Source of the DNA: Cliona cf. orientalis | Lineage: Eukaryota; Porifera; Demospongiae; Clionaida; Clionaidae | DNA length: 64,000 nt | Assembly: GCA_963930775.1 (NCBI GenBank) | Contig: OZ005690.1 | Location: forward strand, 9,760,411-9,824,410 | Direction: 5' to 3' | Part shown: piece after piece, positions 1,108-35,803 of the stretch | Position numbering within the stretch: the stretch's first letter is position 1 | How the letters are laid out: every line of letters starts with the position of its first letter | Notes under the pieces: generated by a model | Database searches by the model: none | Told to the model about the DNA's origin: nothing | The model's input: only the letters and a program-made list of their open reading frames with translations | Made by a program: the position numbers and the translations under genes

Positions 1108-4100
1108 TTAGGATAAATACTTATTCTCAAGATCGTTAGCAAGTGCAGTTTCACCAACAGATGGGGACCTCAGAGCATCGATTATTACTGACCAGGTAAA
1201 GGGTCGCTTCAATTGCTTTTTCCATTTAGCAAAAACTTCAAAAAAGCAATCCTGAATATTATCTCCACGTTTTTGACGATCAATGCGCTCTATGAATACC
1301 TGATCAATATCCAGATGAAGAGCTATCATTTCCCATTTGTTTGTCTTTGTTGCCACTTCATCCATCAGTAGTGCAAGGGTAGGTTCTGAGCCGATTGTTA
1401 CATTGCCAACATTAACTGCTGTAATGAAAATTGCAATGTCATGTATAGACTCATACAATTACTGTGAACATAAAAATACCATAGTCAATTTTAAGTTCCC
1501 ATGCACTCCTACATCCGTGTACAAAGATTAATTTCAAGGAGTGTTCCCATGCAAGTGTGAGACATTATAGCAAAACTCTTGTGGACTTCCATTTGGGAGA
1601 TTATGTTACTGGTAGCTATTATATTTAGAACCACGAAAATTAATTCTTGGGGCTAAATCTTATACTTTATACGAAAGATTATACTCTCCAAACATACCAG
1701 TAGCTACTATAAAATATTATTATGTACACTACACAGTAGAGTAATAGTATTACTAATAGGCAATACATGCACAGTATCAAAAAAATTTTTACTATGATAA
1801 TACTTACATTCATCGATGAAGTCTGAAGTAGAAAACCATGGCAGCTGCTTACTATTCAGTTTCACTGGCCGCTTAGACCGATTCTTGATACATCTCATTG
1901 ACCACTGTGCGTCATCTTTATCCAGTACTCTCGTTCCATGTGGTTTTGCCTGATCGCATATCTCACACAAAAATCCGGTGCTTATGTCAATGTTTTCCGG
2001 ACTATAAGCTAGACATTTGGCTGCTGCATACCAAAGAGCCTTACTAACGGTACGTCTGATGTCACAAAGGTGCTTCTTTTCACAAGTCGTATAAATCTCA
2101 AAGCATGACAATTGATCTATAATTACTACTTTTCCCAGTAGTGTCAAATCTCGATTCCATTCATGAACTCGAAATCCAATGAGGTTTCGTTTCAGCATGC
2201 TGGAATCACTATCAATTTTCCAGTGTGGAAGCTTAGCTAAAAATGCAACAGATGCACAAAAAAGACCACGTGGTGAATAATCATCAGAAAAAGATATTAC
2301 TAGGCACTCAATACCAGCAGTATCCATGTCAAAAATTATCCTTTGTAGATATTTGGAGTTTTCAGCATCGTACTCAAGTGCCAAAACACATGGTACAAAA
2401 AATTGACTAGGACTGACCTTGGCAACTATACAGAGTTCTGTTAGAAGCTCAAACAGGTCATCTTGTGTAAAGCCACGGCCAAAATCTTGTTGAAATGATT
2501 TCACTCTAGATAACAAGCCCTTATCCAAAATTCCTGTTTTACGGTAATTGCACCTCTCCTGAGCAGTAGCTCCACTATTTTCTGAGACACAGTCAAAGCT
2601 TTGAACAATCACCTCTGATACTTTGTTAAAAAGAAAAGAAGGCGAAATGAATACAATGTGAGGAAGAATTTTTGGGAAGTAAAGAACCAAGTTAAGCTCA
2701 TCAAATAATTCAAGAGCATTCCCTACATCTTTATCATCCATCATAATATCTTCTTTCTTAGCTAGAGCTGTACATTCTGTTCTGCTAATGAAATACTGAT
2801 CTTTTGAAGCATCTTTGAGAAGATTCAAGAAGAGAAACCATCGAATTGGAATCTTCACTTTTAAGCTTTCTGTAAATTTTTCAATATTTATATGAAGGTC
2901 TTCAATTACCTTTTCATTTGTAGCCCACCCTTGTTCACTACCATCAACAGCATAGATAGGCTTATCTGTGTGACGGGATGGGGTAAATGGTACACAGTTG
3001 CCAGATTCTGTGAATGGCTGGATACATTTGTGTACAGCCTCTTGCTTGCTATCAATAAGGCTGGACTCACACTTATCTTTGAACATTCCAATGACAGCAA
3101 AATGTGGTTTCGGGATTCGACTGCTAGTACGGCATTCAATAGTACGGGAAAATGTGCATGAACTTATGGTGCGTAGAGACTGTTCAAGATAAACCTTGTT
3201 TGTTATCATCATGCTTTCTGGAACAGCATATTTTACGCCATTGATTTCATAATCAAATTTTGGACGATCTCCGAGTCCCTCATTAAGTTTATGCACTAAA
3301 AAATGTACCGACGAACCCCGAATGAAAATCGGCATTATTTCTTGAAACTGGGGTTGACCTCCAGTATCAACCAGGTAGATCAGCCTCATTTTTTTCAAAC
3401 ATTTTGGCTTCCGCTTTAAATTCCTTTCAAGTAGTTTCATCAAGTTCTTCCTGATTTCACTTCTTGTTTTAGACATGAATCGCTTCATAATTATAGTAAT
3501 GTTAGGCTTTTTGTGATTGTACAAAGTGTTAGCGATCAGCAAAGAAAGCTTTTTACTGTTGGTAGTATACCACCTTACTTTAGATCCATCTCGTAGACGG
3601 TGCATTTCAACAAGCTCTTCATTAAAGTCTATCACGTTGCCAATTATGTGTTCAGCTTCTGTTGCTAAAGCCGTACTTTGTCGTCCACCCACAGGTCGCT
3701 TCTTTCCAGACACTAATGCTTTAAAGTGAGACTTACCAGAACCTGGGGGTCCAAACACACCACATTTAGCGATAAGAATTTCAACTGAACCTTCGGCTAA
3801 TGTTTCATCAAGCTGGCTATGAAAATCCTCACCTGCATGAACAAAAATACCAGTATATATAGCTAGCTAAATACATAGCTACAATTATTTCGTATGCCAT
3901 ACAGCATGGATACATATTAATTGAACCAAAATTTGAAGAATATAATATTATCAAGGTAGACCTATAATATAATATGCCGTGATTATGCTAGCCTACCATT
4001 ATAATAATGCTCTCTAAATTTGAATTCTAACAAACACTGTAGAACTGGAAGTTTTGCTGAGATGGAGAATTGTTAGTGTGTGTGTGGGGGGGGGGGGGGA

Positions 4101-7100
4101 GAGGGGGATATAACTGTACGCCAAGTTCAGTCTTCTTATTAGTCTAATATGCCCCTCATTTCTTCGTTTCACAGCATGCATTAGCCATTATAGCAGAAGG
4201 TAAGAATTTCAATGATGCATGGTGATCAAGCAGGTCTTAAGGAACAATTTAAATTACAACAGTAATGAAAGTCAAGCAAGGTTGGAGATTGATCAATTAA
4301 GAAATAACATGCACAGGTATAAAACTGTGTAAGATTTCAATGTGACAGAAATTCCACTGGGCAAAATGCAAACATTTTGTCAACAAGTGAATACGCATTG
4401 ACAAGTTTTCTATGAGTGAAAATTTTTGCCTGCGCAGTGGTAATCAACCTATAGCTATACAAGAACCTAGAGATACCATTGTAGTTATCACATGCATTAT
4501 TATGATAGTCGTATCATAGCAGGTATAACCGTAATAGTAGTTATCATGTACAAGCACATGATTTGTTGTGATAACAGTGTGGCCACAAGTGGGTTAAGCT
4601 ATGTCTAGGGTATATATCCCTGTGGTGGGGTAGTTTTGACCAGATCGATACCAGTACTGTGCAGCACACCTGCAACCACACAGCATGCATATAGTGGTAA
4701 TCAACCTATAGCTATACAAGAACCAAGAGATACCATTGTAGTTATCACATGCGTTATTATGATGGTCGTATCATAGCAGGTATAACCGTAATAGTAGTTA
4801 TCAGACAAACGCTGTACAAGCACATGATTTGTTGTGATAACAGTGTGGTCACAAGTGGGTTAAGCTATGTCTAGGGTATCCCTGTTGTGGGGTAGTTTTG
4901 ACCAGATCGATACCAGTACTGTGCAGCACACCTGCAACCACACAGCATGCATATAGCCCCGTATAAGGTCACTGACTGTGTAAATGAAACGTGATAGCTA
5001 GCTATGGTTAGGCTGACACGAATACTTAGTAGGAGGATGATATGTACACGATTTCACAGTGTATGCATTAATTGTAAATTGCTGTGTGCACCCTCCAGTA
5101 TAATTATAGGAGTGGATTAAAAAGAGCACCTGGGTGCACGTGCTAATACCCAGGACCCTACGGTATATTCACTGAATCATTAGAATTAACATTCGAATTG
5201 GAAATGGATAGATGAGAAATGTATGATTTGAATGACAGTTGGTGAGTTCAAGTACTATAATAATAAAATTAATATTATATCCCCAGTAGCAATTTACTTT
5301 TCTGTGGTTATTAGGTAATTGTGGTGTAACCTATGGTGAAATTATGATGCAACCTATGAGATAATTATGAAAAATCTAGAGCCTCGCTGGAGCCTTTCTG
5401 GGACTTGAAAATCAGTAAATATATGTAGAGTATCTTACGCGTGTATCCAGTGAATAGATTACAAGCTGAGCGCTACTTTCTCTGAGAAGTACCGTTGGTT
5501 GAACTTCACGTGTTTTCTTGGCTTACGTAATGCCGTCAAGAGTATATAAGAGGAGGGAGAGAGAGTGTCCTACTTCCTATTGCTGTGTGCAAACACCCTT
5601 TGCCAAGTACAGAGGTCAATATGGTTAGCACTACACAAAGGTTACCACAAAACAGTACAGGTGCATGACCACCCATAGTATTTTAGTGCTTATCATTGCT
5701 CACTAGACCACTATCATGTGTGCAAGTACAAGCGCGCGGTTATATGCCAGACGTTTGTGGTGAGTTTGTGTGTAAGATAGCGTAACTTGACCTCTGTACT
5801 TGGCAAAGGGTGTTTGCACACAGCAATAGGAAGTAGGATACTCTCTCTCCCTCCTTTTATATACTCTTGATGCCGTGGATAAATAAAGCTAGCCTAGCAC
5901 GCATCATTGTCAAGGGGCTGGCCGCGCGAGACTGCAGCAGCGCGACCAACCGGAAGTTCGGAAGGAATACTGTGCTGTCGAGTTCATCTCTGTGATTGAA
6001 GCATCGAAACTTGTCGTTATCAAGGTTGAGAGTTGATCTTAGACGCAATCTCCATGATTTCTGGGCCAGCATCGATCGATGTGTACGCATTCTATTGACG
6101 ACCTTTTACCACATGCACCATTACACTGTGCAGCTACTGGGGATATGGTCAAGTGTTCATTATATCAACAACCACCCAAAGTTAATAAACACGTGTCATT
6201 AAGGCTTAATTACAAACTTGACCCTATACTGTAACAGTATTACAATGTCATATCAAGTAATATGTACATTAACATTCCATAGCTATCTCGTGCAGGTAAG
6301 TAATAGTAATTAAGTACCCTTATGCTCATATCACACCATGCATCATGATTAATCATGCAGATTTGTACTGTAACACTATTTTATCAGATTATGTGGTTGC
6401 TATAATAACCATTCACTTGTGTGGTTCAAGTGGATATTTAGGGCGCATTCATTATTATTATATTATAATAAAATAGGTTCACTCCATGGTGGCATGTTAA
6501 AATAAAGCTAGCTTGTGGTTTGCTCACCATTATCACCAGCTTGTACTTGCATTGTAGTTGACACACCTCCAGGTTTACAACTTGGTACAGGTGTACTCTG
6601 CTGACTACTTGAGCTATGAGATGTGTGTGGTGGTTGTCGGCTTATAAATCTTGACTTTGTTACTGGTAGCTTAATTTTAGATGAAGTTTTCTCGTCAGCA
6701 CCCAAGGTGGAAGATGGTGATCCTGAATCTGATTGAAGTGCTATTTTAATGCCGTTACACTGAGCTTTATAGGTAACACACTCTTTAATTGGCTTTTTCC
6801 TACATAATAATGAGATAAAAAAATTTATCAAGCAAGCAAAAGACTTAGTGATGAACTACCAGTGGTATACAGATTTCAGGGTAAGCTATAAATGATTCTT
6901 CAGCTGCATAATTTCATACCCAGAACATTTTGGACAACTATCAATTTGCATGGTGCTAAACAGGGAGTTAGAGATATACACAGCTTTGTCTGCATGCAAA
7001 TTTCAATGCCATTCCCATTTATGCCTATGATCATACTAGGCAACGAGCAACTAACAGCTTGATCTGAACACAGGTTGATTCTGTATGCCAAAGCAATCAA

Positions 7101-10100
7101 GAAGCAATCAAACTTAACCCCTGTGCAAGGTGTATGCTAGTCATTCGAGTCTTTAACATGCTACATAGCTACAATAATAACAAGGTGCTATAATATTAAG
7201 CTTCTTATAGTATTCTTAAGATTAATTTTTGTTAAAATTCTTTATTCACAATTTCTGGCGCATTTGCTGGCCACTACTGCTTCTTGAGCTCTTGATGGAT
7301 AAAACAGAGAGTGATTACAGCAGTCTAGTGTATTAATTATCAGTAGTATGGTGATAATTCATCACTGGTCACAAAAAGCTAGCTATCAACCACACTTCTA
7401 TTCCTTAATGTGCTGATCTGGAATGGCATACATGCATGTCGCACTATAGCTATTATGTTTGGCATTCTTATGGTTACTCTCACCAAGTCAGTGCTGCTGG
7501 CTAAATTTTGTGGCTCGAATAGGAATAGATAAGGGTTAGGAGTATTGAATTAATGTACTAAACTTAGAATAGGGTTCCTGAAACTTGAGCTCGCTCACTA
7601 GTGTAGTACTTGGAGCATTTATTGCTGTCACTATCATAACAAGTACATGCATGGTGCTAGATAAGTGCTAATTGAGTTTCAGTCACTGATTCAGAAGCAG
7701 TTGTTACAGCAATCAGTACTTTATAGACACAACTTGTCACCATATTTCCGAAACGCAGTAACTGTTATGCAGTTTAATGCTCCTATCCCTTATTTACTAC
7801 TGATCAGAACGATAGTACTTCATGCATTATACAACAAATACTCTAGTTATCTTGAAGTGATATGGAGGTACATGTAAGTCCCATTGCTCCCCCTTCCTCC
7901 AGTCAGTAATCTGTATGACAACCAGTATTGTACTAGGGAAAACTTACAAACAAGCGTGGTGGAAACTTTTATTCCTAATGAAAGAGAAAATTTATGAATT
8001 TTTAGTATGCACTTGATAACCATAATTTTAAGTTAGTGTTAACTTACAGGCAGTTTTTGCATTCTCCACAGTCAGGCTTACTACACACAGGACAAAATTT
8101 CTTTACTTTCTCAGAGCAACGAGTTTTACGAGTACGTTTGCCACCAGGCTTTACTCTTCTCCGTTGTTTTGCAACCTTGCTGGAAGCACATGGTCTCTTT
8201 AGAGATTGCTTACGCTCCTTTTGTACACCCTCTTTTGATGACCTAGTTGACTTGACAGTCAGTGTATGTTTTTGCATTGTGGTGAGAGAGGTAGGCGGCT
8301 TATCAAGTTCAGGTACATAACCACTAGCAGTCTTATCAGATGGTGAAACCATGAATGTTTTCGTGGTGGTATTTCCTGTAACATATCCACTAATTTCTGT
8401 CACATTACTTGAGTCTATGACCTTAGGTTGATTGTTGTCTGCTGTTGCCATCGGTGACATAATATTATGTGGAATTTCGGATGAAGAGTGGCTGAGTCGA
8501 GGATCTGTATGTGGCCACTTAGTACCCACTAAAGGTTTTGTGTCAGACTCTTTACCAAATGAATGGGTGCTAAACAATTCTTTTTTTGGTACACCTGGTG
8601 GTGATGACATAATACGTGGAATTTTGGATGAAGAGTGACTGAGTTGAGGATCATCGTGTGGCCGCTTGACACCTACTTTAGATTTTACGTCAGACTTTTT
8701 ACCTGAAGAATGGGTACTAGGCAGTTCTTTCTTTTGTACACGTGGTGTTGATGACACGCGTGGAATTTTGGGTGAAGAGTGACTGAATTGAAGACCGTGA
8801 GGCTGCTTGACACCTACTTTAGATTTTACACCAGACTTTTTGCCTGAAGAATGGGTACTAGGCAGTTCTTTCTTTTGTACACGTGGTGTTGATGACACAC
8901 GTGGAATTTTGAGTGAAGAGTGACTGAATTGAAGATCGTGAGGCTGCTTGACACCTACTTTAGATTTTACATCAGACTTTTTGCCTGAAGAATGGGTACT
9001 AGGCAGTTCTTTCTTTTGTACACGTGGTGTTGATGACACACGTGGAATTTTGAGTGAAGAGTGACTGAATTGAAGATCGTGAGGCTGCTTGACACCTACT
9101 TTAGATTTTACATCAGATTTTTTGCCTGAAGAATGGGTACTAGGCAGTTCTTTCTTTTGTACACATGGTGTTGATGACACACGTGGAATTTTGGGTGAAG
9201 AGTGACTGAATTGAAGACCATTGGCAACGTGAGGCTGCTTGACACCTACTTTAGATTTTACATCAGACTTTTTGCCTGAAGAATGGGTACTAGGCAGTTC
9301 TTTCTTTTGCACACGTGGTGTTGATGACACACGTGGAATTTTGGGTGAAGAGTGACTGAATTGAAGACCAACGTGAGGCTGCTTGACACCTACTTTAAAT
9401 TTTACATCAGATTTTTTGCCTGAAGAATGGGTACTAGGCAGTTCTTTCTTTTGTATACGTGGTGTTGATGACACGCGTGGAACTTTAAGTGAAGGGTGAC
9501 TGAATTGAGGATCTGGGTGTGACCGCTTAGTACCCACTTTAGGTGTTACATCAGATTCTTTGCCAAGTGAATGCTGGGTGCTAGGCAAATCTTGTCTTAG
9601 TACATGTGGTGATTTGGGTAACTCTGCGGATACTGATTCTTCTAACTCTGATTCTTTACTAGCTAAAACAGTCTCAGCCGAGAGCCGTTCAATTGAATCC
9701 TTCAGTTTGTTCAATTCTCCAATGACAAGCTTTCTCACATTTTCTTCCCGACTAGTCTGAAACAATTCCATTATATTGTCAGCTGTAGATTCAATCACAG
9801 ACTGCACATCTGATATTTCTGCTCGGTCCGAGAAATGGATGTGAAAATTAATACAATATCATAATAATTGCATACATGATGAGCACATAGCAGATGGGTC
9901 CTTCCCACGTTTTCTCACTTAATAATAATAATTGAGTACAAGTATGTTTGATATCACAATCATGGGATAGGTGACTGAACACTACTAACAGCATGCATGC
10001 TTTGTATAATCGAGTGCCAGTTAGTACAGTGCGCATGCGCAGATGAAGCACCACCGAACTTCGAACCTATGTTATTCTTGTGTAGACCACACCCCTCACT

Positions 10101-13065: not shown

Positions 13066-13200
13066 TAATACGAAATTCATGTATATTATAATATGTATAT
13101 ATACCCCGGTAATAGCCGGTATATTATGTACAAACATTGCACAAATTGCAAACATGTAGCTAGATTATGCTTTTAATTATAGTATGAGCAGATATTTTGC

Positions 13201-13825
13201 TTTCAGTTGACTAGCTAGCCTAAACTCAGCCACTGAGGGTGACTCTAGTGCACTGATGATCACTAGCCAAGTAAATGGAGGAGTCAATTTCATCTCCCAT
13301 GCACTTGTTGAAAACATTGATGAAGCACGCTTCAATCCTCCCTTGCTCTTCGATATGTTCTAATTATCAGTGTGAGAGAGGTCAAGCTGAAGTCCAATCT
13401 CCTCCCACTTATTCGTATGAGTAGCAACTTCATTCAGCAAATCAGGGAGAGTTGCAACAGGGCCAGAAAGATCATCTAAATTGTGTGAATATTTAGAGAG
13501 TGAGGAAAGGAGAGAGAAATAGAGAGAGAGGAATCAAAAGGAAGAGAGAGTGACGGGGAAGAGGGGTAAAAGTGACTGCATATACTGTAGCTTGGTCATG
13601 ACCCCTATAGTATTATGCACATAACATTATTATACGTGCACATGTCATGCCATTGTATGCATGCGTGCACCACACATAGTTAAGATGTTCCTATTTGGAA
13701 GTGGAGTAGATCTCACTGTGTGAGACCATACATGTCCATTAGCTAATAGCTACCACTCAACCTAATCTATAAGGGATCGGAGCTGCACGCTGCACTTCGC
13801 TATCGCCCATGATGAGTCACACTGT
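13201..13825 (-). pseudogene. Decayed fourth CXXC-Roc-COR-Death copy: Death-domain exon and COR 3' scraps
   Basis: 13201-13477 is a near match to gene B's Death-domain exon (shared ttgactagctagcctaaact and ggccagaaagatcatctaaa) but contains small indels, such as catgca inserted near 13300 and a disrupted tatcagtgtgagag stretch near 13365, which break the frame. 13689-13825 resembles part of the exon before it (gtggagtagat..gtgtgagacca; tatcgcccatgatgag), heavily rearranged. The rest of that exon is missing. No open frame survives. Confidence 0.85.
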
Positions 13826-16651: not shown

Positions 16652-17342
16652 GCTGAGTGCTGCTTTATATAAAACAACATAGTTAGCTAGCTACATGCAC
16701 ACATAAGGGGCAAGAATGAGTGTAGCTACCCCCACACTAACGCTTTACTGAATCTACCTAATCCTAGAAAGGAAGTGTGTATCCTGCAGTGGTGTATCTG
16801 GGAGGGGGATGCTCAGGGTGCTCAAGCCCTCCTCCCTTAGGCTCAGAGACATAAATAATTAGTGCTAGTATGCCTAAGTTTAAAAATATCATTAGCTAAG
16901 CATTAAAAATGCTATACTAAAGCTTCAAAATCACTACCTAGTCATCAGTAGCTGCTCACCTACACTAGTACTCTTCTGTCTCTGCAAATCAATTAACAGG
17001 TAAGAAGGAGTGCACCCCCACACTATTACTTTCCTATCACTGGCAGTAGTATCTAGCTAGTCCAGTTGTTAGCTAGCTAGACATGATGTTTGTATCAGTG
17101 ACAGATTCCAAGGAGTGTCCATAAATTAAAGTTCCAGAGAAAGTAATTTTGGTTGATATTCACAGTGTGGTAGCTAAGGCTATGATAGGATCATTCATGA
17201 ACTTCTTTTATGCATGCCGTTGATGACATTCATTGATCCTATGGCACGAACAATTAAAAAAATCACCGCCTTCCCACCGCATGCTAGCTAGTATGAAAAT
17301 TTCTAGCTATTATGAGAAACTAATTAATTTATTACCATGGCC
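16652..17342. other. Intergenic, nothing recognised
   Basis: AT-rich spacer upstream of the ZU5-Death exons. Missing 5' exons of that gene could lie here, but I see no convincing coding segment. Confidence 0.35.
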
Positions 17343-18495: not shown

Positions 18496-21400
18496 TATGT
18501 CAAAGCAATGCAATCAAGAAACAACGAGGCTATCAAATCATAGTACCTTGCTTTCAGTTGACTAGCTAGCCTAAACTCAGCCACTGAGGGTGACTCTAGT
18601 GCACTGATGATCACTGGCCAAGTGAAAGGAGGAGTCAATTTCGTCTCCCACTTGTTGAAAACCTTGATGAAGCACGCTTCAATCCTCTCTTGCTCTTCGA
18701 TTTTGATATGTTCTATATCAGTGTGAGAGAAGTCAAGCTGAAGTCCAATCTCCTCCCACTTATTCGTTTGAGTAGCAACTTCATTCAGCAAATCAGGGAG
18801 AGTTGCAACAGGGCCAGAAAGATCATCTAAATATTTAGAGAGTGAGGAAAGGAGAGACATTAATAGAGAAAGAAACCAAAAGGAAGAAGAGAGTGACGGG
18901 GGAGAGAGGTGAAAGTGACTGCATAGCTACTGTAGCTTGGTCATGACCCCTATAGCTAGTATTGTGCACATAACATTATTATAATTATGTGCAAATCTCA
19001 TGTATGCATGTGTGCACCACACATAGTTACACACATGCTTACACTCTGAGGTGAACCATGCCATCTGTTGAGATGTCAGCTGTCTTGCTCGCTTTGACGA
19101 ATTCCTGATGCATTTAGAAGACCACTTCCTCGTCTTTTGGTTGAACATTGCAGCAGTGCCGTGAGGCTCACTCACCCCACAGTCGATACGACATGAGAAT
19201 CCCACATTAACCTCCATGTCTGTGGGACTGTATGACAGACTCTCAGCAGCACACCACAGGGCACCATAGATCGTTCGTCGGATATCACAAAGATGTTCGT
19301 GCTCACAAGTGGAGTAGACCTCGATGTGTGAGACCATATCCATGATTACCACTCTAGATCTACCTAAGGGAGCCGCTTGCTGCACATTGCTATCACCCAT
19401 GATGAGATCACGTAGCTCGAATTCGATCAGATTTCGCTTTCGTTCCAGTTGGCACTGCGTACTCTCGACAATCCAGTTGGGCAGCTTTGCAAGGTGAGCA
19501 ACAGAGGCACAAAAAATACCGCGAGGGGAGTACCCATAAGGAAATGAAATGAACAGCGGCTCGATTCCAAGCTCTTGCATGTGTGAGCGAATGGCAATCA
19601 GCAGCTGGGAATTGTGGTCTTTACGGTGGAGAGCTAGGACGCATGGAATAAAGAAGCAATTGTGACTGACTTCCGCAATAATGCAAAGCTTCACTAAAAG
19701 ACACAAGAGGTTGTCAACGTTAAAGGTGACTTCATCAAAGCCACTATGAAGGGATCTTACCCTTTCCAGTTGATCCCTAGTGAAAATACCTGTTCTATGG
19801 AATTCTAACCTCTCTTGTCGCGATAAACCAGACCAATCTTCACGACAGTCAAAGCTCTGAGCAATAATTTCGGACACCTTATTGAAGAGAAACTCTGGCG
19901 AACAGAATACTACATCGCGAAGTATGTTCGGAAAGTACAGAATCAGGTTAAGCTCATCGAATAACAATAACGCATCATCTACATCTCTTTTGTCCATCAT
20001 AATGTCTTCTCGTTCTGCAATTCCGTAGCACTCGGTCAGACTCAAAAACGGACTTTTGTGGTCTTTTAGAAGATTGAGGAATAGAAACCATCGAATGGGA
20101 ATCTTCACTCCAAGACCCTCCGTGACTCGTTCAATGTGTGCATGAAGATCGTCAATGACATCACCATTCTCTGCCCACCCCTCTTCGCTACCATCAATAC
20201 AAAAAACTGGCTTATGAACATGTCGGGAGGGGGTGAGAGGAATGCACTTTTTCGACTGGGTGAATGGCCTGATGCACTCGTTTACCGCTCTGTGCTTTTC
20301 TTGCAACATTTCATCACTGCATTGATCTTTGAACATGCCAATAACAGCAAAGTGTGGTTTCGGGGGGGTGGTCCTGGTAGCTCGCTTGGTGATATTTCGG
20401 GAGAAAATGCACGAGCATATGGTACGCAGCGACTGCTCAAGATATTCTCGATTTGTTACGAACATCTCCTCTGGGATGGAATATCTCACGCCGTTGATCT
20501 CGTAGTCGAATTGTGGGCACTGGTCAAGCGACTCGTTAAGCTTATGAACGAGTAGGGTCACGGAGGAGTTCCTCACAAAGATCGGCATGATTTCCTGAAA
20601 ATGAGGCAGCCCACCAGTGTCCACGATGTACAGGAGTTTCATTTTGTTCAGACATTTTGGTTTTCCCTTGCGTGTTGACAGCATCTTGAGGTGTTTTTTG
20701 ATCACTTTCCTGATGGCTGATATTTGGTGTTTCTGCTGGGGTCGACTTTGTGATGCAGGATTTGAAGATGTTTCATCACCACTAGCGCTCCTGCTACCTA
20801 CAGTGTCAGTATAAAACTAGATTCTATATAATAATATTATATGTAATCATATAAATGTGTAAAAATAATTGTTGATGATGCAGAACACGGGCTTCTGGTT
20901 AACGTGTATGTTACAGATATTATTGAGAACACTACGGCTAAATAATACAATGTATAGCCGGAAATATTGGCAGAAATTAAATTTGGTGGTTGAGCCCAAA
21001 ATCACTATTGCAATAATAAATTTGGTGGTTTGTTACAGGATTGCCATATAATACGTATGTATGCAAGTAGAAAATTTTGGCGGATTTTAATTTGGTGGTT
21101 GTAATATAGACTGCCTAAATTTAATTCCCTGCCAAATTTTCTGGCTATTCGGTAATATGAGTAAGCTTAAGATAAATCTTCTGGAAACACTCATGATATA
21201 ATACTATTATACGTTTAATAATACGATACCTACCTTTGGTTTGGTTATGAATGGTCTTTGCTATGAGCAGCGACAACTTCTTACTGTTAACCACCAGCCA
21301 CTTGACCTTTGACCCACTCTTATTTCGATGAAACTCGACTATCTCTTCCTCGAAGTCGTGAGTGACACAAGCGGCAGGGATAATCTGGTCAGCTTCCGTG

Positions 21401-24400
21401 GCCAGGGCGGTGCTCTGACGATGAGCTGGACGACTCTTGCCAGAGATGAGTACTCGGAAATGTGATTTACCTGTACCTGCATTGCAATGCATAATCAGAC
21501 GCAGACACAACATTAATGGCTTCATGGTTTTAGTGGTTGCATATTAATGATATTCTGTGATATCAAATCTGGAAAGAGATGGGTTGCATACTCCTGGTAC
21601 GTAGTAATGTACTTATGATAATATAGGCCTTTGTATTCATTGATTAAATGTCTACGTTGATAGCAATCAAACTACACTCTATAGAGCACCACTGACCCTT
21701 CATATCATCTATAGTAGTGATCTGACCTGGAGGCCCTGAAACTCCACATTTTGCCGTGAATATTTCAACGTATCCATCTCTGAGAGCTCTGTCCAATCTC
21801 TCGTGAAACTCATCATCACTTTCATTATCAGACTCTATTATGGACATACATGATAAAGTAATATCTGGAAGTGTTATAATTATATACAAAGAGAGAGTTG
21901 GGTAAGCCATGACACTTCCACTCACAACCCTCTCCCTCCTTCCATCCACACCACTTCCCTATCATTTCAAGGATCACTATCATAATAGGATGGCTGTATC
22001 TACATGTACATTGTAAACAAAATTCCCGGAATGGTTTACCATAATATTATCACCAGATTTGACATCACAACCACCCTTGTAATATAGGCCTGAATTTGCA
22101 ATGCACATGCGTTCTAGTAGTACTGGCAGAGAGTGGTCAGTAGTGGGGGAGGGGGGGGGAGGGGGAATGTTAGTAGTGGTAGTTTATTTAGCACCCACTT
22201 AGATTACAACTTTCACAGCTTTTGTGCTGCAGTTTGTGGTAATTGTACCTCTGCAGCTGAACATACATGTAGCTATAGCTGTATAGCTGTGCTTGTGCAT
22301 GTAAGCCATTGTTGCTGCCTTCCCTTGCAAAGACACTAGTCTTATATCTGGCTGTACTATGCATAGACATGTACAATGCATAATAAATATAATGTCCGAC
22401 CAACAGTTGGTGATGTCCGACCAAACTGGAATATGGTCTGACATTTGTCAGATTATCAACAAACAATTATAATCCATCCTGCTCCAAGTTATGTACTCCT
22501 GTTAGTACACATGCAAGTGTTTTTATCTAGCACATGTAGACATTCATAGGAAGCCAACTAAATAACCATGCATAGGCAATGGCTATATAGAAATAACTAA
22601 ATTACATGCCCACCCCAGTAGAATGTTATTTATGGGGAACCCTGACTCAAAATTAGCTCCATGCTTGGACACACTGACTAGCTATGTATATGTAGTGCCA
22701 GCACAGAGTGTGCAAATGCACACCTGATAATCTTAGATCTCTCCAAGAGGGTGGATGATGCACAGGAGCTCTATTGCTTGATGACTGGCCCCCTTGGCTC
22801 CATCTAAGGCAAGGTTTGTTCTTCCTTTTTCTGCAGAATGTACGTTGATGCAATTCGATGCTGTGTTGTGATATTTTATTATTAACTTACATGCATGGTT
22901 AATTCGATCGATGATAGCGTTTTTTATCCCTATTAGAAGGATATTATGGAGATGGAGAGAGAGAGAGAGAGTGAGAGCATGGAGATGTACACACAAACAT
23001 TAAATATCGTTTGTATTAACTTTAAAGATTATCGTAAGTTTATCTAATGGTAGTCAGCAATCCTAACTTACAAGCAATATCGGCAGATGCCACAGTCGGG
23101 AATATGGCAGTTTTCACACACTCCACACCTTTTCCTTTTTTTCTTTCTTTGCTTCTTCGGCAGTTCGTTCAACTGACCCACTGAACTATCTGACGACAAT
23201 TCTTGTTCTGACAAATTAGCAGTTTGTGTGCTACTAATGGCATTCTCTTCCATGCTCAAGGATCTCTGAGTGCCGTACAGCATAATATTACTACTGGATG
23301 ACTCCCCTGTAGTTGCTCGTAGATGTACCATAGGACTACTGAGATTTGCTGATTCAGGAGGTAAAAACGGAGAGATCAGTGCACCAAGCGAATCTGCGCA
23401 GGCAGAGAGAAAATATTAATAATTATTTGATAGGATGAAAAAAGATGCTATTTAAACATAAGTATATATTGATAGCATTATAACTATTATGCACAGAATT
23501 CTCAATTATTAACCAGGTGAAGATATTCATGAACACGAAGTCTCAGAATCAAAATTAATTTATTTCATGGGCCACCCTTATTTCAAGCATGCTTCCTCAG
23601 GGAAGGGGTGAACATGCAACGTACAAGAAATAGGGATAGCTAGACAGTTGCATGAGAATCTCTACCTGGAGGTGTCTGGTTAGTTATCATCATTTCTTTG
23701 CTATTAATCTCAGACAGTCCAGGAGTATAACCCAAGGCTTGATTCACTTCGTCATCGAAAATAGTAGTCACTGAGTGAGCTCGCTTGTTTCTGTTCGTCA
23801 TCTTGGGTCTTTTTCTCGGTGGTGTGCCCTGCAGTGACCATGTACTTTCGTTTGATATCTCCCTCCTTAGCCTGCTACGAAAAATCGGGACAGGAGTTGG
23901 ACATCCATTGTCAAATGAAGGTTCTGAAGGCGTTATTTCTGTGACTGTAGAATTGAATGAGCTCTCGTTGTGCAAACTCAAATTGCCCCTAGTGGTGAGT
24001 GAAATGGATTCTTCCATCTTTGATGCTGCTGTTGGAGTGGAGGTAGAGGGCTGATGTCTATTCATTTGTACAGGAGTCCCCCCAGTGTGTGTGTCGAGTT
24101 GTTCCGGACTCTGATTGGCACACAGTACGATCAGCTCAGATGATGCAGCTTCTTGTTGTACACCTAGCTTACTCGAGGTTGTTGGGATATATATCAGATC
24201 TTCATCCATGTCACTAGTAGACCCACCACTGCTACTAACACTAGTCCTGTTAAGAGTCTCAAACTCCTGCGCAACACTAGTATTGCCCTGCACACCTAAA
24301 GTAGCACCTAACAGGGATAATGCAGGCCTAGGCTCGTCTTGAGGTGCTTCAGCGTTGGTTAGTAGTCGATAGAGGTTAATCTCATGCTGCTGAGCATTTC

Positions 24401-25361
24401 CACCCTGAGGATAAAGTGATGCACAACTAAATGCAGCAAGTTTCACTACATTATCTAGAACGCGTGCATTGACCGTTATCTGTTGCACCTGTGAAGGTAT
24501 CGGTTGAGTTGATCTGCTATTACTTCCGACGACTTGAGTCGAAGTGATTCCTACTGAATGGATAGTTCCTGATTCCTGGTTGGCCACACTTACGTGACAG
24601 CCTGACGATATCAATGTTGTGGTCACGCATGAGTTCGAGTTCACGTGCACAACTGATCTGGGTGGCGATTCACTGATGATTATAGGCATAGATCTATTGG
24701 TATCATTATTATTACTAACAGTAGTCACCTCAATAGTAGCCTCCGTAACGTTATCATTCCCGGTATCCCCAGGTTCAGTTTGGGTAGAAGGTGTTGCTTG
24801 AGTGCATCCAGTGGTCACTGTGACCTGGTTAGCCTCATCCTCGGCGGGCGGTTGTAGATTCGTCATGGCGTTTCTATTGTGATCCAGAGTTACTGTACTG
24901 TTTATCGAGCTACGTGTACGTGTGTTTGAGGGAGAGTAGCTCTGATCATCCTGAGATGAAATATCTCCAGGCAATGTTATCACAGGCGCTGGCGCCGACT
25001 CCAGGCGGAGCGGCCCGCGGCGTCGCTGCTGTTCATGTTCGGCAGACTGAGCGGGCTCACCGTGATCTTGTGGAGATACGATTACGAGTGCAATCTGCTG
25101 GGAATTTGAACCTCTACTGGAAATATCCTGAATAACAACTGCTTCGCGTTCGCCGTGAGTATCATAGTGCGCGTAAGGACTCCCGTTGATCGGCTGTTCA
25201 TCCTCGGGCAGAGGGTCGGCGCCGATTAATATCACCGGCTGAGCACTATTCGTTGAATTTATACCGCTGAGAGGCGATTCATGATCATCGTCGGAGCTGA
25301 TGATCTCTGCGCCAGGTTCTTCATCAGAAATAACGATGCATTCTTCCTTCGGATCCGCCAT
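18459..25361 (-). CDS. Gene B: SIM / CXXC-like finger / Roc-COR GTPase / Death domain protein
   Basis: Seven exons: 25361-23666, 23393-23072, 22830-22724, 21834-21727, 21476-21234, 20797-19043, 18826-18459; about 1532 aa. Every junction has GT-AG ends and matching phase (1,2,1,1,1,1). Start MADPKEEC has a good Kozak context (agcATGG), and its context is conserved in gene C. Residues 8-13 (CIVISDEE) look like a SUMO-interaction motif; ~20-640 are Ser/Thr/Pro-rich and disordered. The CXXC-like finger near 650-690 reads RCGVCENC..DCGICRYC then NKPCLRWS: no KFGG, and Ser where the eighth Cys is expected. The P-loop GPPG|TGKS (~744) is split by an intron; G3 is DTGGLP, G4-like GMFKD; a COR-like region (IPIRWFLFLNLLK) and a Death domain (TNKWEEIGLQL, PPFTWPVII) follow. 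Its tail runs into a MITE before stopping. G3 has Leu where C has Gln. Confidence 0.85.
20950..21155. mobile_element. MITE in gene B intron 5, also present in gene C
   Basis: An inverted-repeat element with tagccggaaatattggcag on the left and ctgccaaattttctggctat on the right, with internal repeats of aatttggtggtt. The equivalent intron of gene C holds the same element (31392-31605), so it inserted before the B/C duplication. Boundaries are approximate. Confidence 0.65.
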
Positions 25362-28421: not shown

Positions 28422-31400
28422 TCACGAGGCTATCAAATGCTTTGCTTTCAGTTGACTAGCTAGCCTAAACTCAGCCACTGAGGGTGACTCTAGTGCACTG
28501 ATGATCACTGACCAAGTGAATGGAGGAGTCAATTGCGTCTCCCACTTGTTGAAAACCTTGATGAAGCACGCTCCAATTCTCTCTTGTTCTTCTATTTTGA
28601 TACGTTCTATATCAGTGTGAGAAAGGTGAAGCTGAAGCCCAATCTCCTCCCACTTGTTAGTCTGAGAAGCGACTTCATTCAACAGGTCAAGGAGAGTTGC
28701 AATGGGGCTATCTAAAATTTAATTATGAGTGTCAAGAGGGAGAGGAAGGAGGAAGAGAGGGAAATAGGAAGGAAGGGAGAGAAGGGGGTAGACTGATTGC
28801 AAAAAATAGTTATATCTTAGCCCCAGGTGACTGTAGTCTAAGATTTGTGAAATTCGTGAAGGTTTTCCCCTTTGAAAGTTTCCCGTAATCTCTATGCATA
28901 TTATCATAATTATTATTCCATACAGCAGTTATTAATAGCTACATACATACATGCACACACTAACATGCATGTGCAGATGCTTACTCTCTGTGGTGAACCA
29001 CACCATCTGTTGAGGTGTCAGCTGTCTTGCTCGCTTTGACGAATTCCTGATGCATTTAGAAGACCACTTCCTCGTCTTTTGGCTGAATGTTGCAGCAGTG
29101 CCATGAGGCTCACTCACCCCACAGTCAATACGACATGAGAATCCCACATTAACCTCCAGGTCTGTGGGACTGTACGACAGACTCTCAGCAGCATACCACA
29201 GGGCACCATAGATCGTTCGTCGAATGTCACAAAGATGTTCTTGTTCGCAAGTGGAGTAGATTTCGATGTGTGAGACCATGTCCATGATTACCACTCTACC
29301 TAATGGAGCTGCTCGCTGCACTTCGCTATCACCCATGATGAGATCACGTAGCTCAAATTCGATCAGATTTCGTTTTCGTTCGAGTTGGCATTGCGTACTC
29401 TCGACAACCCACTTGGGCAGCTTTGCAAGGTGAGCAACAGAGGCACAAAAAATACCACGAGGGGAGTACCCAAAAGGAAATGAAATGAACAGCGGCTCTA
29501 TTCCAAGCTCTTGCATGTGTGAGTGAATGGCGATCAGCAGCTGGGAATTGTGCTCTTTACGGTGGAGGGCTAGGACGCATGGAATAAAGAAGCGATCGTG
29601 ACTAACTTCCGCAATAATGCAAAGCTTCACTAAGAGATACAAGAGGTTATCAATGTTAAAGGTGACTTCATCAAAGCCACTACGAAGGGATCTTACCCTT
29701 TCCAGCATATCCCTAGTGAAAATACCTGTTCTATGGAATTCTAACCTCTCTCGTCTTGGTAAACCAGACCGATCTTCGCGACAATCAAAGCTCTGAGCAA
29801 TAATTTCAGACACCTTATTGAAGAGAAACTCTGGCGAACAGAATACTACATTGCGAAGTATGTTCGGAAAGTACAAAATCAGGTTAAGCTCATCGAATAA
29901 CAATAACGCATCATCTACATCACTTTTGTCCATCATAATGTCTTCTCGTTCTGCAATTCCGTAGCACTCGGTCAGACTCAAGAACGGACTCTTGTGTTCC
30001 TTTAGAAGATTGAGGAATAGAAACCATCGAATGGGAATCTTCACTCCAAGACCCTCCGTGACTCGTTCAATATGTGCATGAAGATCATCAATGACATCAC
30101 CATTCCCCGCCCAGCCCTCTTCGCTACCATCAATACAAAAAACTGGCTTATGAACGTGTCGGGAGGGGGTGAGAGCAACGCACTTTTTCGACTGGGTGAA
30201 TGGCCTGATGCACTCGTTTACTGCTCTGTGCTTTTCTTGCAGCATTTCATCACTGCATTGATCTTTGAACATGCCAATGACAGCAAAATGTGGTTTAGGG
30301 GGGGTGGTCCTGGTAGCTCGCTTGGTGATATTTCTGGAGAAAATGCACGAACATATGGTACGCAGCGACTGCTCAAGATATTCTCGATTCGTTACTAGCA
30401 TCTCATCTGGAACAGAATATCTCACACCGTTGATCTCGTAGTCAAATCGTGGGCACTGGTCAAGCGACTCGTTAAGCTTATGAACGAGTAGGGTCACGGA
30501 GGAGTTCCTCACAAAGATCGGCATGATTTCCTGAAACTGCGGCTGCCCACCAGTGTCCACGATGTACAGGAGTTTCATTTTGTTCAGACATTTTGGTTTT
30601 CCTTTGCGCGTCGATAGCATCTTGAGGTGTTTTTTTATCACTTTCCTGATGGATGATATTCGGCGCTTCTGTTGGGGTCGACTTTGTAATGCAGGATCTG
30701 AAGATGTTTCACCACCACTAGCACTCCTGCTACCTACAGTGTCATCATGAAAAGAGATTCTATATAATTGTTCATGATGCATAACATGAAACACTCATGG
30801 GCTTCTGGTTGTGTATGTTGCAGGTGTTATTGAGAACACTACAGCTAAATAATAATAATATACTGTACAAGGAGTGAGCTTGCTTTGCTCGCTCACTCCT
30901 TTATCTTTGTGCTGCATATTATTGTGCATGTACCGTCGACGACCTTTACCTACATATTTTGCGCATGCGCTCGCACGTGCACGTACTTCCTGATCATGTG
31001 ACTTTGTCAATCAGCTAGCTGAAGAAACTCGTTAGTTGTCTTGCAGCTTTGCTTGTAAGGGCTCCCAAGAGAAGACGCGTACGTAGAATAGAATCGCCTC
31101 CTTCTGAACAGCACCTATGGGCAATATTGACTCCAGAGTTTCACCCCTTTGCATTCTCCAGGCCGCCATTGTAAGTGGTAATGTTCAGTCCTAATTCTGC
31201 CCTGGTGTTTCTTTGAAGCAGCTGACGTTAGTCGCTGCTGGGGCCATACCTAGCCGTGTCAGTGGGCTATCTGTTGTATCGCCCCAAGTCCAGCGATGCC
31301 TAGAAATAAAACGTTTTAGCTCGGGTCGAATCGCTTCCGGTCACCTTTCCGGACGTACGCACGCACGCACGGACAACTATAATCTTAGTATAATGATAGC

Positions 31401-34400
31401 TGGAAATATTGGCAGGAATTAACTTTGGTGGTTATAATTATGTTAGTGGATTTAAATTTGGTGGTTCGGTACGGGATCGCCATAATATGTATATATACAA
31501 TAATTTTTGGCGGATTTTAATTTGGCGGTTGTAATAATAAATGTAGACTGCCAAACTGCCAAATTTAATTTCCCACCAAAATTTTCTGGCTATACGGTAG
31601 CTAATATGAACAAGCTTAAAATTGGAAACACCCATGATAATAATATTATTATTAATAAGATACCTACCTTTGGTTTGGTTATGAATGGTCTTTGCAATGA
31701 GCAGTGACAATTTCTTACTGCTAACAACCAGCCACTTGACCTTTGACCCACTCTTATTTCGATGAAACTCGACTATCTCTTCCTCGAAGTCGTGAGTGAC
31801 ACAAGCTGCAGGGATAATCTGATCAGCCTCTGTGGCCAGGGCTGTGCTCTGACGCTGAGCTGGACGACTCTTGCCAGAGACGAGAGCTCGGAAATGTGAT
31901 TTACCTGTACCTGCATTGCAATGCATATAAGCATAATGCTAGTTCAGCTCCATGTATAACATAGTATTATAATGATATTATCAGGAGTATACACATTACA
32001 AGGAGTGTGTAACGCACACAGTAGTAGTTCAAACATCTCTTTACTGATTTGACATCACAACATGGGCCTGAATGCATGTCATTAAAAGCTAGGTACCTAA
32101 ATTGCTACCACTGAATTATATAATTCTGTATACATGTAGCTACAACAAAGTTACTATCAAAACACTAATAGGACAGTGCAGACAAGACATTCATGACTTC
32201 ATGGTTTTAGTGGTTGCATATTAATGATATTCTGTGATATCAATCTGGAAAGAGGTGGGTTGCATACTCCTGGTACCTAGTAATGTACTCCTGATAATAT
32301 TATCAGCCTTCATATTCAATGATTAATGTCTATGCTGATAGCAATCAAACTACAGTAGCTACAGTAGCTCTATAGACCACAACAGACCCTTCATATCATC
32401 TATAGTAGTGAGCTAACCTGGAGGTCCTGAAACTCCACATTTTGCCGTGAATATTTCAACATATCCATCTCTGAGAGCTCTGTCCAATCTCTCGTGAAAC
32501 TCATCATCACTTTCATTATCAGACTCTATATGAACACACATGATAAATCAATATCTGGAAGTGTTAGAGTGGGGTAAGCCATATATAACACTTCCATGCA
32601 CCCATAACCCTCTCCCTCCTTCCCCCTTCCATGCATCCACACCACTTCCCTATCATTATCAGACTCTATACGAATATACATGAAAAATTAATATCTGGAA
32701 GTGTTATATATACATGTATATACATAGAGAGAGTGGAGTAAGCTATAATACTTCGATCCACTCACAACCCTCTCCCTCCCTCCCCCTTCCATCCACACCA
32801 CTTCCCTATCATTTCAAGGATCATTACCATAATAGGATGGCTGTATCTACATGTACATTGTAAACAAAATTCCAATGGTTTACCATAATATTATTATTAT
32901 TACTAGTTCACATGCAGTGTTTTATATAGCACATGTAGACATTCATAGGAAGCCAACTAAACAAGCATGCATGGGCAATAGACTAGAAATAACTAATTTC
33001 ATGCCCACCCCAGTATAAATAATAATTTAGGGAGAATCCTGACTCAAATTAGCTCCTGAATTTATCAATGCTTGGACACATTGACTAGCTAGCACAGATG
33101 CAAATGCCAGCAGCTATATCTATATACACACACTTGTATGCATACCTGATAATCGTAGATCTATCAAAGAGGGCGGGTGATGCACAGGAGCTCCACTGCT
33201 TGATGATTGGCCCCCTTGGCTCCATCTAAGGCAAGGTTTGTTCTTCCTTTTTCTGCAGAATGTACGTCGATGCAATTCGATGCTGTGTTGTGATATTTCA
33301 TTATTAACTTACATGCATGGTTGATGATAGCGTTTTTTATCCCTATTGGAAGGATATGGAGAGGGAGAGAGTGATAGAGAGTGAGAGCATGGAGATGTAC
33401 CATAAACATTGAATATCGTTTGTATTAACTTTAAAGATTATCGTAAGTTTATCTAATGGTAGACTAAGTCAGCAATCATTACTTACAAGCAATATCGGCA
33501 GATGCTACAGTCGGGAATACGGCAGTTTTCACACTCTCCACACCTTTTCCTTTTTTTCTTTTTTTGTTTCGGCACTTCGTTCAACTGACCCGCTGAACAA
33601 TCTGATGACAGTTCTTGTTCTGTCAAATTAGCAGTTTGTGTGCTACTAATAGAATTCTCTTCCATGCTAAACGATCTCTGAGTGCTGTATGGCATAATAT
33701 TACTACTGGATGACTCCCCTGTAGTTGCTCGTAGACGGAAGGATGGATCAAGTACCATAGGATCGCCAAGATTTGCTGATTCAGGAGGTAAAGGCGGAGA
33801 GATCAGTGCACCAAGCAAATCTGTGCAGGCAGAGAGAAAACATACACATTTGATAGTATGAAAAGGTGCTATTAATTTTACGTAAGACTTAGTATAATAT
33901 TATTATAGTGATAGTATTATATTATAACTATTATGCACAGAATTCTCAATTCCTAACCAGGTGCACGTGAGGATATTCACAAGCTTACAAATCTCAGAAT
34001 CATAATTCATGGGCCACCCTTGTTTCAAGCATGCTTCTTCAGGGAAGGGGTGGACATGTAACATGCAGGAAACGGGGACTCGTAGACAGTTGCATGAGAA
34101 TCCCTACCTGGAGGTGTCTGGTTGGTTATCATCACTTCTTTGTTATTAATCTCAGCCAGTCCAGGAGTGGGACGTAAGGCTTGATTCTCTTCGTCGTCGA
34201 AAATAGTAGTCACTGAGTTAGCTCGCTTGTTTCTGTCCGTCATCTTGGGTCTTTTTCTCGGTGGTGCGCTCTGCAGTGACCATGTACTTTCGTTTGATAT
34301 CTCTCTCCTTAGCACGCTACGAAAATTCGGGACGGGAGTTGGACATCCATCGTCAAATGAAGCTTCTGAAGGCATTATTTCTGTGAGTGTAGAATTGAAT

Positions 34401-35803
34401 GAGCTCTCGTTGTGCAAACTCAAATTGCCCCTAGTGGTGAGTGAAGTGGATTCTTTCGTCTTTGATGCTGCTGTTGGAGTGGAGGACTGTATATTCATTC
34501 GTACAGGAGTCCCCCCAGTGTGTGTGTCGAATTCTTCAGGACTCTGATTGGCACCCAGTACGATCGGCTCAGATGATGCACCTTCTTGTTGTACCCCTAG
34601 CTTACTCGAGGTTGGTGGGATATATATCACTTCTTTATCCATTTCATGTAAAACACTAGTAGACCCACCACTGCTACTAACACTAGTCCTGTTAGAAGTC
34701 TCAGACTCCTGCGTATTGCCTGGCACGTGCACACCTGAAGTAGCACCTAACAGGGATAATGCAGGCCTAGGCTCATCTTGAGGCGCTTCAGCGTTGGTTA
34801 GTAGTCGATAGAGATTGATCTCATGCTGCTGAGCATTTCCACCCCGAGGATAAAGTGATGCACAACTGAACGCAGCAAGTTTCACTACATTATCTAGAAC
34901 GCGTGCATTGACCGTTATCTGTTGCACCTGTGAAGGTATCAGTTGAGTTGATCTGCTATTACTTCCTACGACTTGAGTCGAAGCGGCTCCTACTGAATGG
35001 ACAGTTCCTGATTCCTGATTGGCCACACTCACGTGACAGCCTGACGATATCGATGTTGTGGTCACGTACGAGTTCAAATTCAAGTTCATGTGCACAACTG
35101 ATCTGGGTGGTGATTCACTGATAACTATAGGCATAGACCTATTGGTATCACGACTGTTACTAACAGTAGTCACCTGAATAGTAGCCTCCGTAACGTTATT
35201 ATTCCTATCCCCAGGTCTTTGGGTAGCAGGTGTTGTTTGAGTACATCCCTGAGTGGTCATCTGGTTAGCCTCATGCTCGGCGGGCATCATGGCGTTTCTA
35301 TTGTGATCCAGAGTACTGTCTATCAAGCTACGTATACGTGTGTACATGTTTGAGGGAGAGTAGCTCTGATCATCCTGAGATGAAATATCTCCCGGCAATG
35401 TTATCACATGCGCCAGCGGGCGGAGAGGCCCCGCGGCGTGGCCTCCTTGCTGCTGTTCACGTTCGGCAGACTGAGCGGCGGGTTCACCGCGATCTTGCGG
35501 GGATACGATTACGACACTAGCTTGCCTCGACGCTAACGATGCAATCTGTTGGGAATTTGAACCTCTACTGGAAATACCTTGAATCACAACTGCTTCACGT
35601 TCGCCGCGAGTACCATAGTGTGCGTAAGCACTCCCGTTGATCGGCTGCTCATCCTCAGGCCGAGGGTCGGCGCCGATTAATATCGGCTGAGCACCATTCA
35701 TTGGATTTACACTGCTGTGGGATGATTCATCGTCGGAGCTGATGATCTCTGTGCCAGGTTCTTCATCAGAAATAACGATAAATTCTTCCTTCGGATCCGC
35801 CAT
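28422..35803 (-). CDS. Gene C: SIM / CXXC-like finger / Roc-COR GTPase / Death domain protein
   Basis: Seven exons with the same phases as gene B: 35803-34108, 33820-33487, 33252-33146, 32525-32418, 31910-31668, 30733-28985, 28711-28422; about 1508 aa. Exons 1, 3, 4 and 5 have the same lengths as in B (1696, 107, 108 and 243 nt). The N-terminal FIVISDEEPG is SIM-like. Finger: RCGECENC..DCSICRYC then NKPCLRWS. P-loop GPPG|TGKSHF is split by an intron; G3 DTGGQPQFQE is canonical; G4-like GMFKD; COR-like KIPIRWFLFLNLLK; Death domain TNKWEEIGLQLHL ending KHLIAS with its own TGA stop. The CDS starts 190 bp downstream of the 3' end of a GT61 gene on the same strand. Its introns hold an extra ~525-bp element relative to B. 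Confidence 0.87.
30865..31390. mobile_element. Gene C-specific intron insertion
   Basis: The intron between exons 5 and 6 is longer in C than in B. The extra sequence begins near tgtacaaggagtgagcttgc, with a 10-bp hairpin aggagtgagc/gctcactcct, and ends near gcacgcacggacaac. No transposase. It post-dates the B/C duplication, or was lost from B. Confidence 0.55.
31392..31605. mobile_element. MITE in gene C intron, orthologous to 20950 copy
   Basis: Inverted ends gatagctggaaatattggca and ccaaaattttctggctatac, internal atttggtggtt repeats, at the same intron position as in gene B. Confidence 0.65.
32510..32818. repeat. Tandem duplication overlapping gene C exon 4 acceptor
   Basis: The block with tcattatcagactctata and aatatctggaagtg is repeated about 138 bp further on (32514 and 32652), and the pyrimidine-rich tail accctctccctcc...ccacaccacttccc recurs at 32605 and 32767. 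The upstream copy carries a second partial acceptor, so a decoy splice site may exist. Gene B has a single copy. Confidence 0.8.

What the first reader, a model, noticed from the sequence alone, without database searches (positions are those of the whole stretch)
1108..35803. Tandem family fusing a CXXC-like zinc finger to a Roc-COR GTPase and a Death domain
In three paralogues the exon ending in the Cys-rich finger, the exon completing it, the P-loop exon(s), the COR exon and the Death exon join with matching phase, and the same join occurs in all three. CXXC fingers are known from chromatin proteins that bind unmethylated CpG (KMT2, DNMT1, CFP1, TET); Roc-COR with Death is known from DAPK1 and sponge/cnidarian relatives. 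I know of no described protein with both. A DNA- or chromatin-linked sensor signalling through a Death domain is a reasonable but unproven reading.
Basis: partly seen in the sequence, partly recalled or inferred. Interest (0 to 1): 0.88.

Follow-up and report, generated by a model that had tools for sequence, protein, structure and literature searches.

The report
Sponge Roco-Death proteins with CXXC remnant
A sponge carries a small tandem family of genes that appears to join a shortened version of a DNA-binding zinc finger to a GTP-driven molecular switch and a cell-death signalling domain, a combination I did not find described, though the finger has lost the parts that usually read DNA.

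The parts
23666..25361 (-). Copy B exon 1: start ATGGCGGATCC, disordered-looking, SIM-like motifs, basic cluster PPRKRPK
   Evidence: genome search found it only at B and C
23072..23393 (-). Copy B exon 2: basic stretch and first half of CXXC-like finger (six Cys), donor TT|GTAAGT phase 2
22724..22830 (-). Copy B exon 3: remainder of finger (one further Cys) and linker; donor TCAG|GTGTGC phase 1
21727..21834 (-). Copy B exon 4: acidic stretch and start of P-loop (GPPG); in-frame ATG lies just upstream (possible internal start)
21234..21476 (-). Copy B exon 5: rest of P-loop (TGKSHFR) and Roc
19043..20797 (-). Copy B exon 6: Roc switch II (VDTGG) and COR
18459..18826 (-). Copy B exon 7: Death domain and stop
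34108..35803 (-). Copy C exon 1
33487..33820 (-). Copy C exon 2: first half of finger
33146..33252 (-). Copy C exon 3: remainder of finger and linker
32418..32525 (-). Copy C exon 4: start of P-loop; acceptor ATAG|AGTC
31668..31910 (-). Copy C exon 5
28985..30733 (-). Copy C exon 6: Roc-COR
28422..28711 (-). Copy C exon 7: Death domain (23.4 bits, cut-off 22.6)
8048..9810 (-). Copy A first known coding exon (5' limit uncertain): N-terminal part shared with D, repeats, finger first half C-x7-C-x2-C-x4-C-x2-C-x2-C
6528..6799 (-). Copy A exon 3: remainder of finger and linker, donor AATG|GTGAGC phase 1 (6567 is an alternative, also phase 1)
1808..3832 (-). Copy A Roc-COR exon (P-loop to COR-B in one exon; no in-frame ATG before the P-loop)
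1108..1418 (-). Copy A Death exon (24.1 bits, cut-off 22.6)
17342..17401 (-). Relic E: remnant of exon 3 (80% identity over 20 aa to A, with an acceptor before it)
13682..13816 (-). Relic E: remnant of COR exon (64% over 45 aa)
13189..13464 (-). Relic E: remnant of Death exon

Best explanation
These are single genes of a sponge clade of Roco proteins: a long disordered-looking, nuclear-type N-terminus with SUMO-interacting-like motifs and basic clusters, a degenerate CXXC-derived zinc finger, a Roc-COR GTPase and a C-terminal Death domain. Shown: one continuous frame in B and C, matching phases in four copies, exclusive and conserved linkage of finger and GTPase exons, Roc-COR fold, Death similarity, constraint on the finger. 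Inferred: the N-terminus and finger place the protein (nuclear bodies, SUMOylated partners or another surface); Roc-COR works as a dimerising GTP switch as in other Roco proteins; when it switches, the Death domain is exposed or clustered and recruits a Death-domain adaptor, as CRADD/PIDD- and FADD-type Death domains do. The finger most likely keeps one zinc site (second CxxCxxC plus the next Cys) and now binds protein, RNA or DNA without CpG specificity.
Against: No RNA evidence. B and C have an in-frame ATG just upstream of exon 4, so a separate GTPase start is possible there. Pfam scores of model B are under the curated cut-offs. P0112 (B/C-type finger exon) and 8 of 13 first-exon relatives had no GTPase hit at their contig length. 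In D, exon 3 is interrupted by a 3557-bp element with inverted ends, and how D would be spliced is unclear. Exon 2 evolves fast (dN/dS 0.65 on 27 changes). SIM-like motifs exceed shuffles in some copies only. P0121 has lost the first half of the finger, so the finger is not indispensable in every copy. The finger of A has no significant match in the PDB set (best E 0.96).
Confidence: 0.6

Rival explanations
1. Two neighbouring genes, a finger gene and a Roco-Death gene, that were duplicated together; phases match by chance and the GTPase gene has its own first exon or start.
For: In-frame ATG just upstream of exon 4 in both B and C; after about 100 bp at 80-85% the stretch between exon 3 and exon 4 is diverged between B and C; no RNA; most finger-exon relatives have no GTPase hit at their contig length.
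Against: No such ATG in A, and no conserved one in the relatives; phase-1 acceptor in the 18 relatives; exon 3 conservation drops at its donor; no finger exon of this kind away from a GTPase and no close GTPase without finger exons found in this genome; P0121 fusion.
Confidence: 0.12
2. The finger is a working CpG reader of the short-loop type 3 (TET1/CXXC4) kind and the protein is a chromatin-state sensor wired to a Death domain.
For: Short loop between sixth and seventh Cys; weak matches to TET1, TET3 and CXXC4 chains (E 0.002-0.02); type 3 domains lack the long loop but bind CpG (PMC4642587, passages).
Against: TET1 reads CpG with an SHQ tripeptide (PMC3685328, passages), absent here; last Cys of the first zinc site missing in B, C, D; the closest chains are type 1 DNMT1, whose KFGG is absent here.
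Confidence: 0.12
3. Both forms exist: a long fused isoform and, in B and C, a short Roc-COR-Death isoform from the ATG before exon 4.
For: ATG in frame in both copies although a 1-bp indel lies between them, so each uses a different ATG; P0009 and P0023 also open with M near this place.
Against: No promoter evidence was sought or found; ATG not conserved in A, D or most relatives.
Confidence: 0.12
4. Decaying tandem copies without function.
For: Relic E; element inside exon 3 of D.
Against: B and C have intact frames and A is open from the finger exon on; dN/dS 0.34 between B and C and 0.20 in Roc-COR; conservation across other assemblies.
Confidence: 0.03

Closest known systems
Roco proteins with Death: DAPK1
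   Same: Roc-COR followed by a C-terminal Death domain (DAPK1 is the human Roco with a C-terminal Death domain, PMC6337361, figure-legend passage).
   Different: No kinase and no ankyrin-repeat match in model B by Pfam at E up to 1; instead a disordered-looking N-terminus and CXXC-like finger. DAPK1's kinase and ankyrin repeats are recalled.
LRRK2/LRRK1 and bacterial/archaeal Roco
   Different: 14-16% identity in those rows; no leucine-rich repeat, kinase or WD40 match in model B; Death domain added.
zf-CXXC domains (type 1 DNMT1/KMT2A, type 2 MBD1 CXXC1/2, type 3 TET1/CXXC4)
   Same: Basic lead-in and the double CxxCxxC motif in B/C; E 2e-4 to DNMT1 chains; PF02008 positions 2-33 of 48.
   Different: No KFGG, no SHQ, seven residues before the next Cys, last Cys missing in three of four copies; A and D have C-x7-C-x2-C in place of the first CxxCxxC.
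PIDD1 / CRADD Death signalling
   Same: The Death profile scores best on CRADD and, more weakly, PIDD chains.
   Different: PIDD1 is an LRR-ZU5-Death protein without GTPase (recalled).

Membership tests
Roco (Roc-COR) family | Ras-like Roc G domain with P-loop and switch II | tested here: met
   GPPG[TS]GKSH and VDTGG[QL]P in the frame; Roc below Pfam cut-off (18.3 of 27 bits in A; 14.2 in B) but the LRRK2 fold match spans it
Roco (Roc-COR) family | COR domain directly after Roc | tested here: met
   A3 profile hits LRRK2 COR E 6e-7; 33 of 58 relatives match COR-A at E up to 1; A itself 24.0 bits, cut-off 35.3; fold match to LRRK2 to residue 673
Roco (Roc-COR) family | GTP binding/hydrolysis and dimerisation | not testable with these tools
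   needs protein
zf-CXXC | Pfam PF02008 over its curated cut-off | tested here: inconclusive
   Spliced B 23.5 bits, cut-off 26.5; the genomic half-finger of B scored 30.3 with a stop read through; A first exon alone and P0117 no hit
zf-CXXC | Eight zinc-binding Cys (two CxxCxxC plus two C-terminal Cys) | tested here: not met
   Seven Cys in B, C and D; A has eight but with other spacing
zf-CXXC | KFGG (type 1) or SHQ tripeptide (TET1, type 3) for CpG binding | tested here: not met
   Absent in all four copies; motif roles from PMC3032784 and PMC3685328, passages
Death domain | Pfam PF00531 over its cut-off | tested here: met
   A 24.1, C 23.4 against 22.6; D 21.0 and B (spliced) 17.0 below
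DAPK family | N-terminal protein kinase and ankyrin repeats | tested here: not met
   No such match in model B at E up to 1; 5' end of A unknown
LRRK family | LRR, kinase, WD40 around Roc-COR | tested here: not met
   No such match in model B at E up to 1

The most novel reading that the evidence does not exclude
A nuclear Roco GTPase of sponges in which a repurposed CXXC finger and SUMO-interacting motifs sense a chromatin, nucleic-acid or SUMO state and, through the Roc-COR switch, assemble a Death-domain platform: a nucleus-to-death pathway parallel to the PIDDosome but built on a Roco protein.
Probability: 0.15. Interest if true: 0.85.

Novelty: new variant of a known kind. Interest (0 to 1): 0.52.

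Why it matters
Roco proteins are known with LRR, kinase and Death neighbours. Six paper searches on these domains listed no paper whose title or abstract describes a CXXC-type finger joined to Roc-COR or Death; but the lists were capped (15 of 350, 12 of 14, 12 of 5,329, 4 of 4, 2 of 2 and 8 of 36 papers shown) and most subscription journals are not held. If confirmed, the family shows how a chromatin-type finger was taken over as a module of a death-linked GTPase in a sponge tandem array, and gives a tractable case for asking what a CXXC finger still does once its DNA-reading parts are gone. It also fits a genome with at least 150 COR-A places.

Tried and rejected
CpG reading by the finger: rejected as the main reading (no KFGG, no SHQ, incomplete Cys set). 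All three copies as independent witnesses: rejected, B and C are near duplicates. The array of Roc-COR genes at C2:9.23-9.71 Mb (L017-L029) as further finger genes: rejected, about 21-23% identity and no finger match in the stretches fetched. Search for the first exon of A: no convincing start. Acceptor CTTCCAG before exon 4: rejected for C (frame lost). Reading the gap in D exon 3 as a normal intron: rejected, it is an element with inverted ends TTAACAC...GTGTTAA, 3557 bp, without ORF of 100 aa or more. The first Death profile (A4) held the Death domain of the neighbouring ZU5 gene as a fifth row; it was repeated with A, B, C and D alone, and the lead of CRADD held with weaker E-values. Identity of contigs in the protein database is inferred from equal contig lengths; names were not shown. 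The second structure job was not used. Foldseek was busy and not asked again; only the VIA-align look was obtained. A finger tree was not attempted (about 25 columns).
Full report
What is there. The window is G000:C2:9760411-9824410 of a 216.8-Mb genome in 149 contigs. The source is very probably this boring sponge, chromosome 2; the name is an inference from lengths.

Gene models. Copies B (25361-18459) and C (35803-28422) each give one frame through seven exons: E1 disordered-looking, E2 first half of the finger, E3 rest of the finger plus linker, E4 and E5 P-loop and start of Roc, E6 Roc-COR, E7 Death, with six GT-AG introns of phase 1,2,1,1,1,1. Both start at ATGGCGGATCC in well-aligned sequence. 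Identity between B and C drops right after the exon 3 donor, recovers to 80-85% for about 100 bp, falls to 0-60%, and returns just before exon 4. Copy A (to 1108) has a first exon ending in the finger, exon 3, one Roc-COR exon and Death; its 5' end was not found. Copy D, in L030 (C2:9742000-9751990), has the same order, with a 3557-bp element with inverted ends inside exon 3. Relic E (17401, 13816, 13464) keeps remnants of exon 3, COR and Death in the same order.

Is it one gene? (a) At the junction between finger and GTPase the top-scoring acceptor and donor are phase 1 in all four copies. For A the top donor is 6567, for B the top acceptor is 21864; I use 6528 and 21834, which are also phase 1. 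For C only the acceptor homologous to 21834 keeps the frame. (b) A has no ATG in frame before its P-loop; D has only one, just before the first strand. (c) Among the protein relatives at 46% or more (P0001-P0037), 18 reach the boundary, and in 18 of 18 the residues there fit an AG acceptor in phase 1 (my reading; P0015 and P0035 are less sure; P0017, P0018 and P0027 may be the same species as the window). P0009 and P0023 begin with M at or near the place. (d) Whole-genome searches, which score only the best candidates: Roc-COR of C finds 71 places, of which only C, B, D and A are close (100, 91, 56, 57%); the other 67 are 26-32%. The first exon of D is found only at D and A, E1 of B only at B and C. 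The finger of B finds B, C and ten ordinary CXXC places, and misses A and D, which are too diverged. None of the 37 other PF02008 hits lies within 20 kb of 159 COR hits (150 and nine of the 71, those on contigs with CXXC hits), the nearest being 58 kb away (both lists are lower bounds). (e) In other assemblies, 13 proteins match the first exon of D/A at E up to 10; five of them (P0113, P0114, P0118, P0121, P0122) share a contig length with a GTPase relative (627125, 295740, 5539, 295740, 6879 bp); the other eight, and P0112, do not. (f) P0121 reads first exon, exon 3 and linker up to the junction in one ORF, without the first half of the finger: nature has fused these exons in the frame that I infer. 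(g) P0039, a relative at 39%, has some 440 aa of Ser/Pro-rich sequence and the GTPase in one ORF, without finger. Against: no RNA; an ATG in frame before exon 4 in both B and C.

The finger. B reads KKKRKRCGVCENCHIPDCGICRYCLKRKNKPCLRWSQ. PF02008 covers its positions 2-33 of 48 at 23.5 bits, cut-off 26.5; in the genome scan the half-finger alone scored 30.3. The PDB search ranks DNMT1 first (E 2.2e-4), then KMT2A, TET1, MBD1, TET3 and CXXC4. The finger of A gives nothing significant (best E 0.96); its kinship rests on position, phase and the shared Cys. A and D read C-x7-C-x2-C-x4-C-x2-C-x2-C. Papers seen in passages: type 1 domains carry KFGG and bind CpG, type 2 lack it and do not, type 3 lack the long loop and bind CpG (PMC4642587); KFGG is a major determinant of binding (PMC3032784), although a later review says that it may give rigidity rather than read the sequence (PMC3685328); TET1 uses an SHQ tripeptide (same). 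None of these is present here. Of the 37 other CXXC places, my pattern extracted 31: 22 with KFGG, six with a one-letter variant, three others, of which L071 looks like the TET/CXXC4 type (type recalled). So the finger is a derivative without the known DNA-reading parts. It is not free to drift: in seven D-type proteins its 25 columns score highest of 500 windows (0.85 mean pairwise identity; of the D/A-type hits P0121, P0123 and P0125 were left out as lacking the finger or truncated, and P0114-P0116 as A-type), and P0112 keeps 22 of its 25 residues at 54% over the whole exon.

Nuclear hints. SIM-like motifs by my pattern: B 5 (20 of 2000 shuffles reach this), C 3 (173), P0113 3 (29), P0117 3 (20), P0118 3 (15), P0119 2 (197), P0120 1 (788), P0121 4 (18), P0122 3 (38), P0124 3 (59), P0114 1 (864), P0115 0, P0116 1 (700). 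So the excess is clear in some copies and absent in others. A VIDL or VIEL motif with an acidic tail stands at the same place in seven of eight D-type proteins, MIDL in the eighth. Basic clusters stand beside the finger. These suggest, but do not show, a nuclear protein; what a SIM looks like is recalled.

Selection. B against C: dN/dS 0.63 (E1), 0.65 (E2), 0.26 (E3), 0 (E4, two changes), 0.11 (E5), 0.20 (E6), 0.23 (E7), all 0.34. Small exons carry few changes.

Mechanism. Roc-COR proteins are proposed to cycle between monomer and dimer with the nucleotide (PMC6337361, passages). I infer that the N-terminus and finger place the protein, that the switch controls its dimer state, and that the Death domain then nucleates an adaptor complex. 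The fusion itself I hold at about 0.85, the functional reading at about 0.35-0.4.

Novelty. A new domain architecture in a known family. Paper searches (capped listings only, apart from PMC8195603 and PMC6337361 seen in passages) showed no described CXXC plus Roc-COR or Death protein; most subscription papers are not in that library.

Noticed in passing
L030:3543-7095 (C2 9.7455-9.7491 Mb): A 3557-bp element with inverted ends (TTAACAC[GA]TTCTCTTTT, 40 bp or more alike) sits inside exon 3 of copy D, without ORF of 100 aa or more; no further copy of the end in the loci held or the window. Relative P0121 is uninterrupted there.
   Followed up: partly
window 1108-1418 and L030:373-677: Death exons of A and D are 92% identical while their Roc-COR exons are about 58%: likely gene conversion or unequal exchange.
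   Followed up: no
window 15047-16690: ZU5 (19.5 bits, below cut-off 21) and Death (33.2 bits) ORFs lie inside the stretch of relic E.
   Followed up: no
G000 C1 (37.5 Mb): 22 of 37 CXXC hits outside the window lie on chromosome 1; several sets are near-identical, some on different chromosomes. Mouse has 12 CXXC proteins (PMC3685328, passage).
   Followed up: no
G000 C2:9.23-9.71 Mb and C3:9.9-10.4 Mb: Tandem arrays of Roc-COR genes with long open frames (21-23% and 27-29% identical to these copies).
   Followed up: partly
P0031: A protein labelled as from a Proteobacteria MAG (MJE68_08170) begins like the A-type sponge GTPase (by eye): probably host DNA binned with bacteria.
   Followed up: no
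window 35996-37585, 44918-46513: Glycosyltransferase 61 genes flank the array (51.8 and 62.3 bits), with a fragment that looks similar at 399-650 (+) (by eye).
   Followed up: no
window 51123-55426: Three methyltransferase-like ORFs in a row, all below Pfam cut-offs.
   Followed up: no
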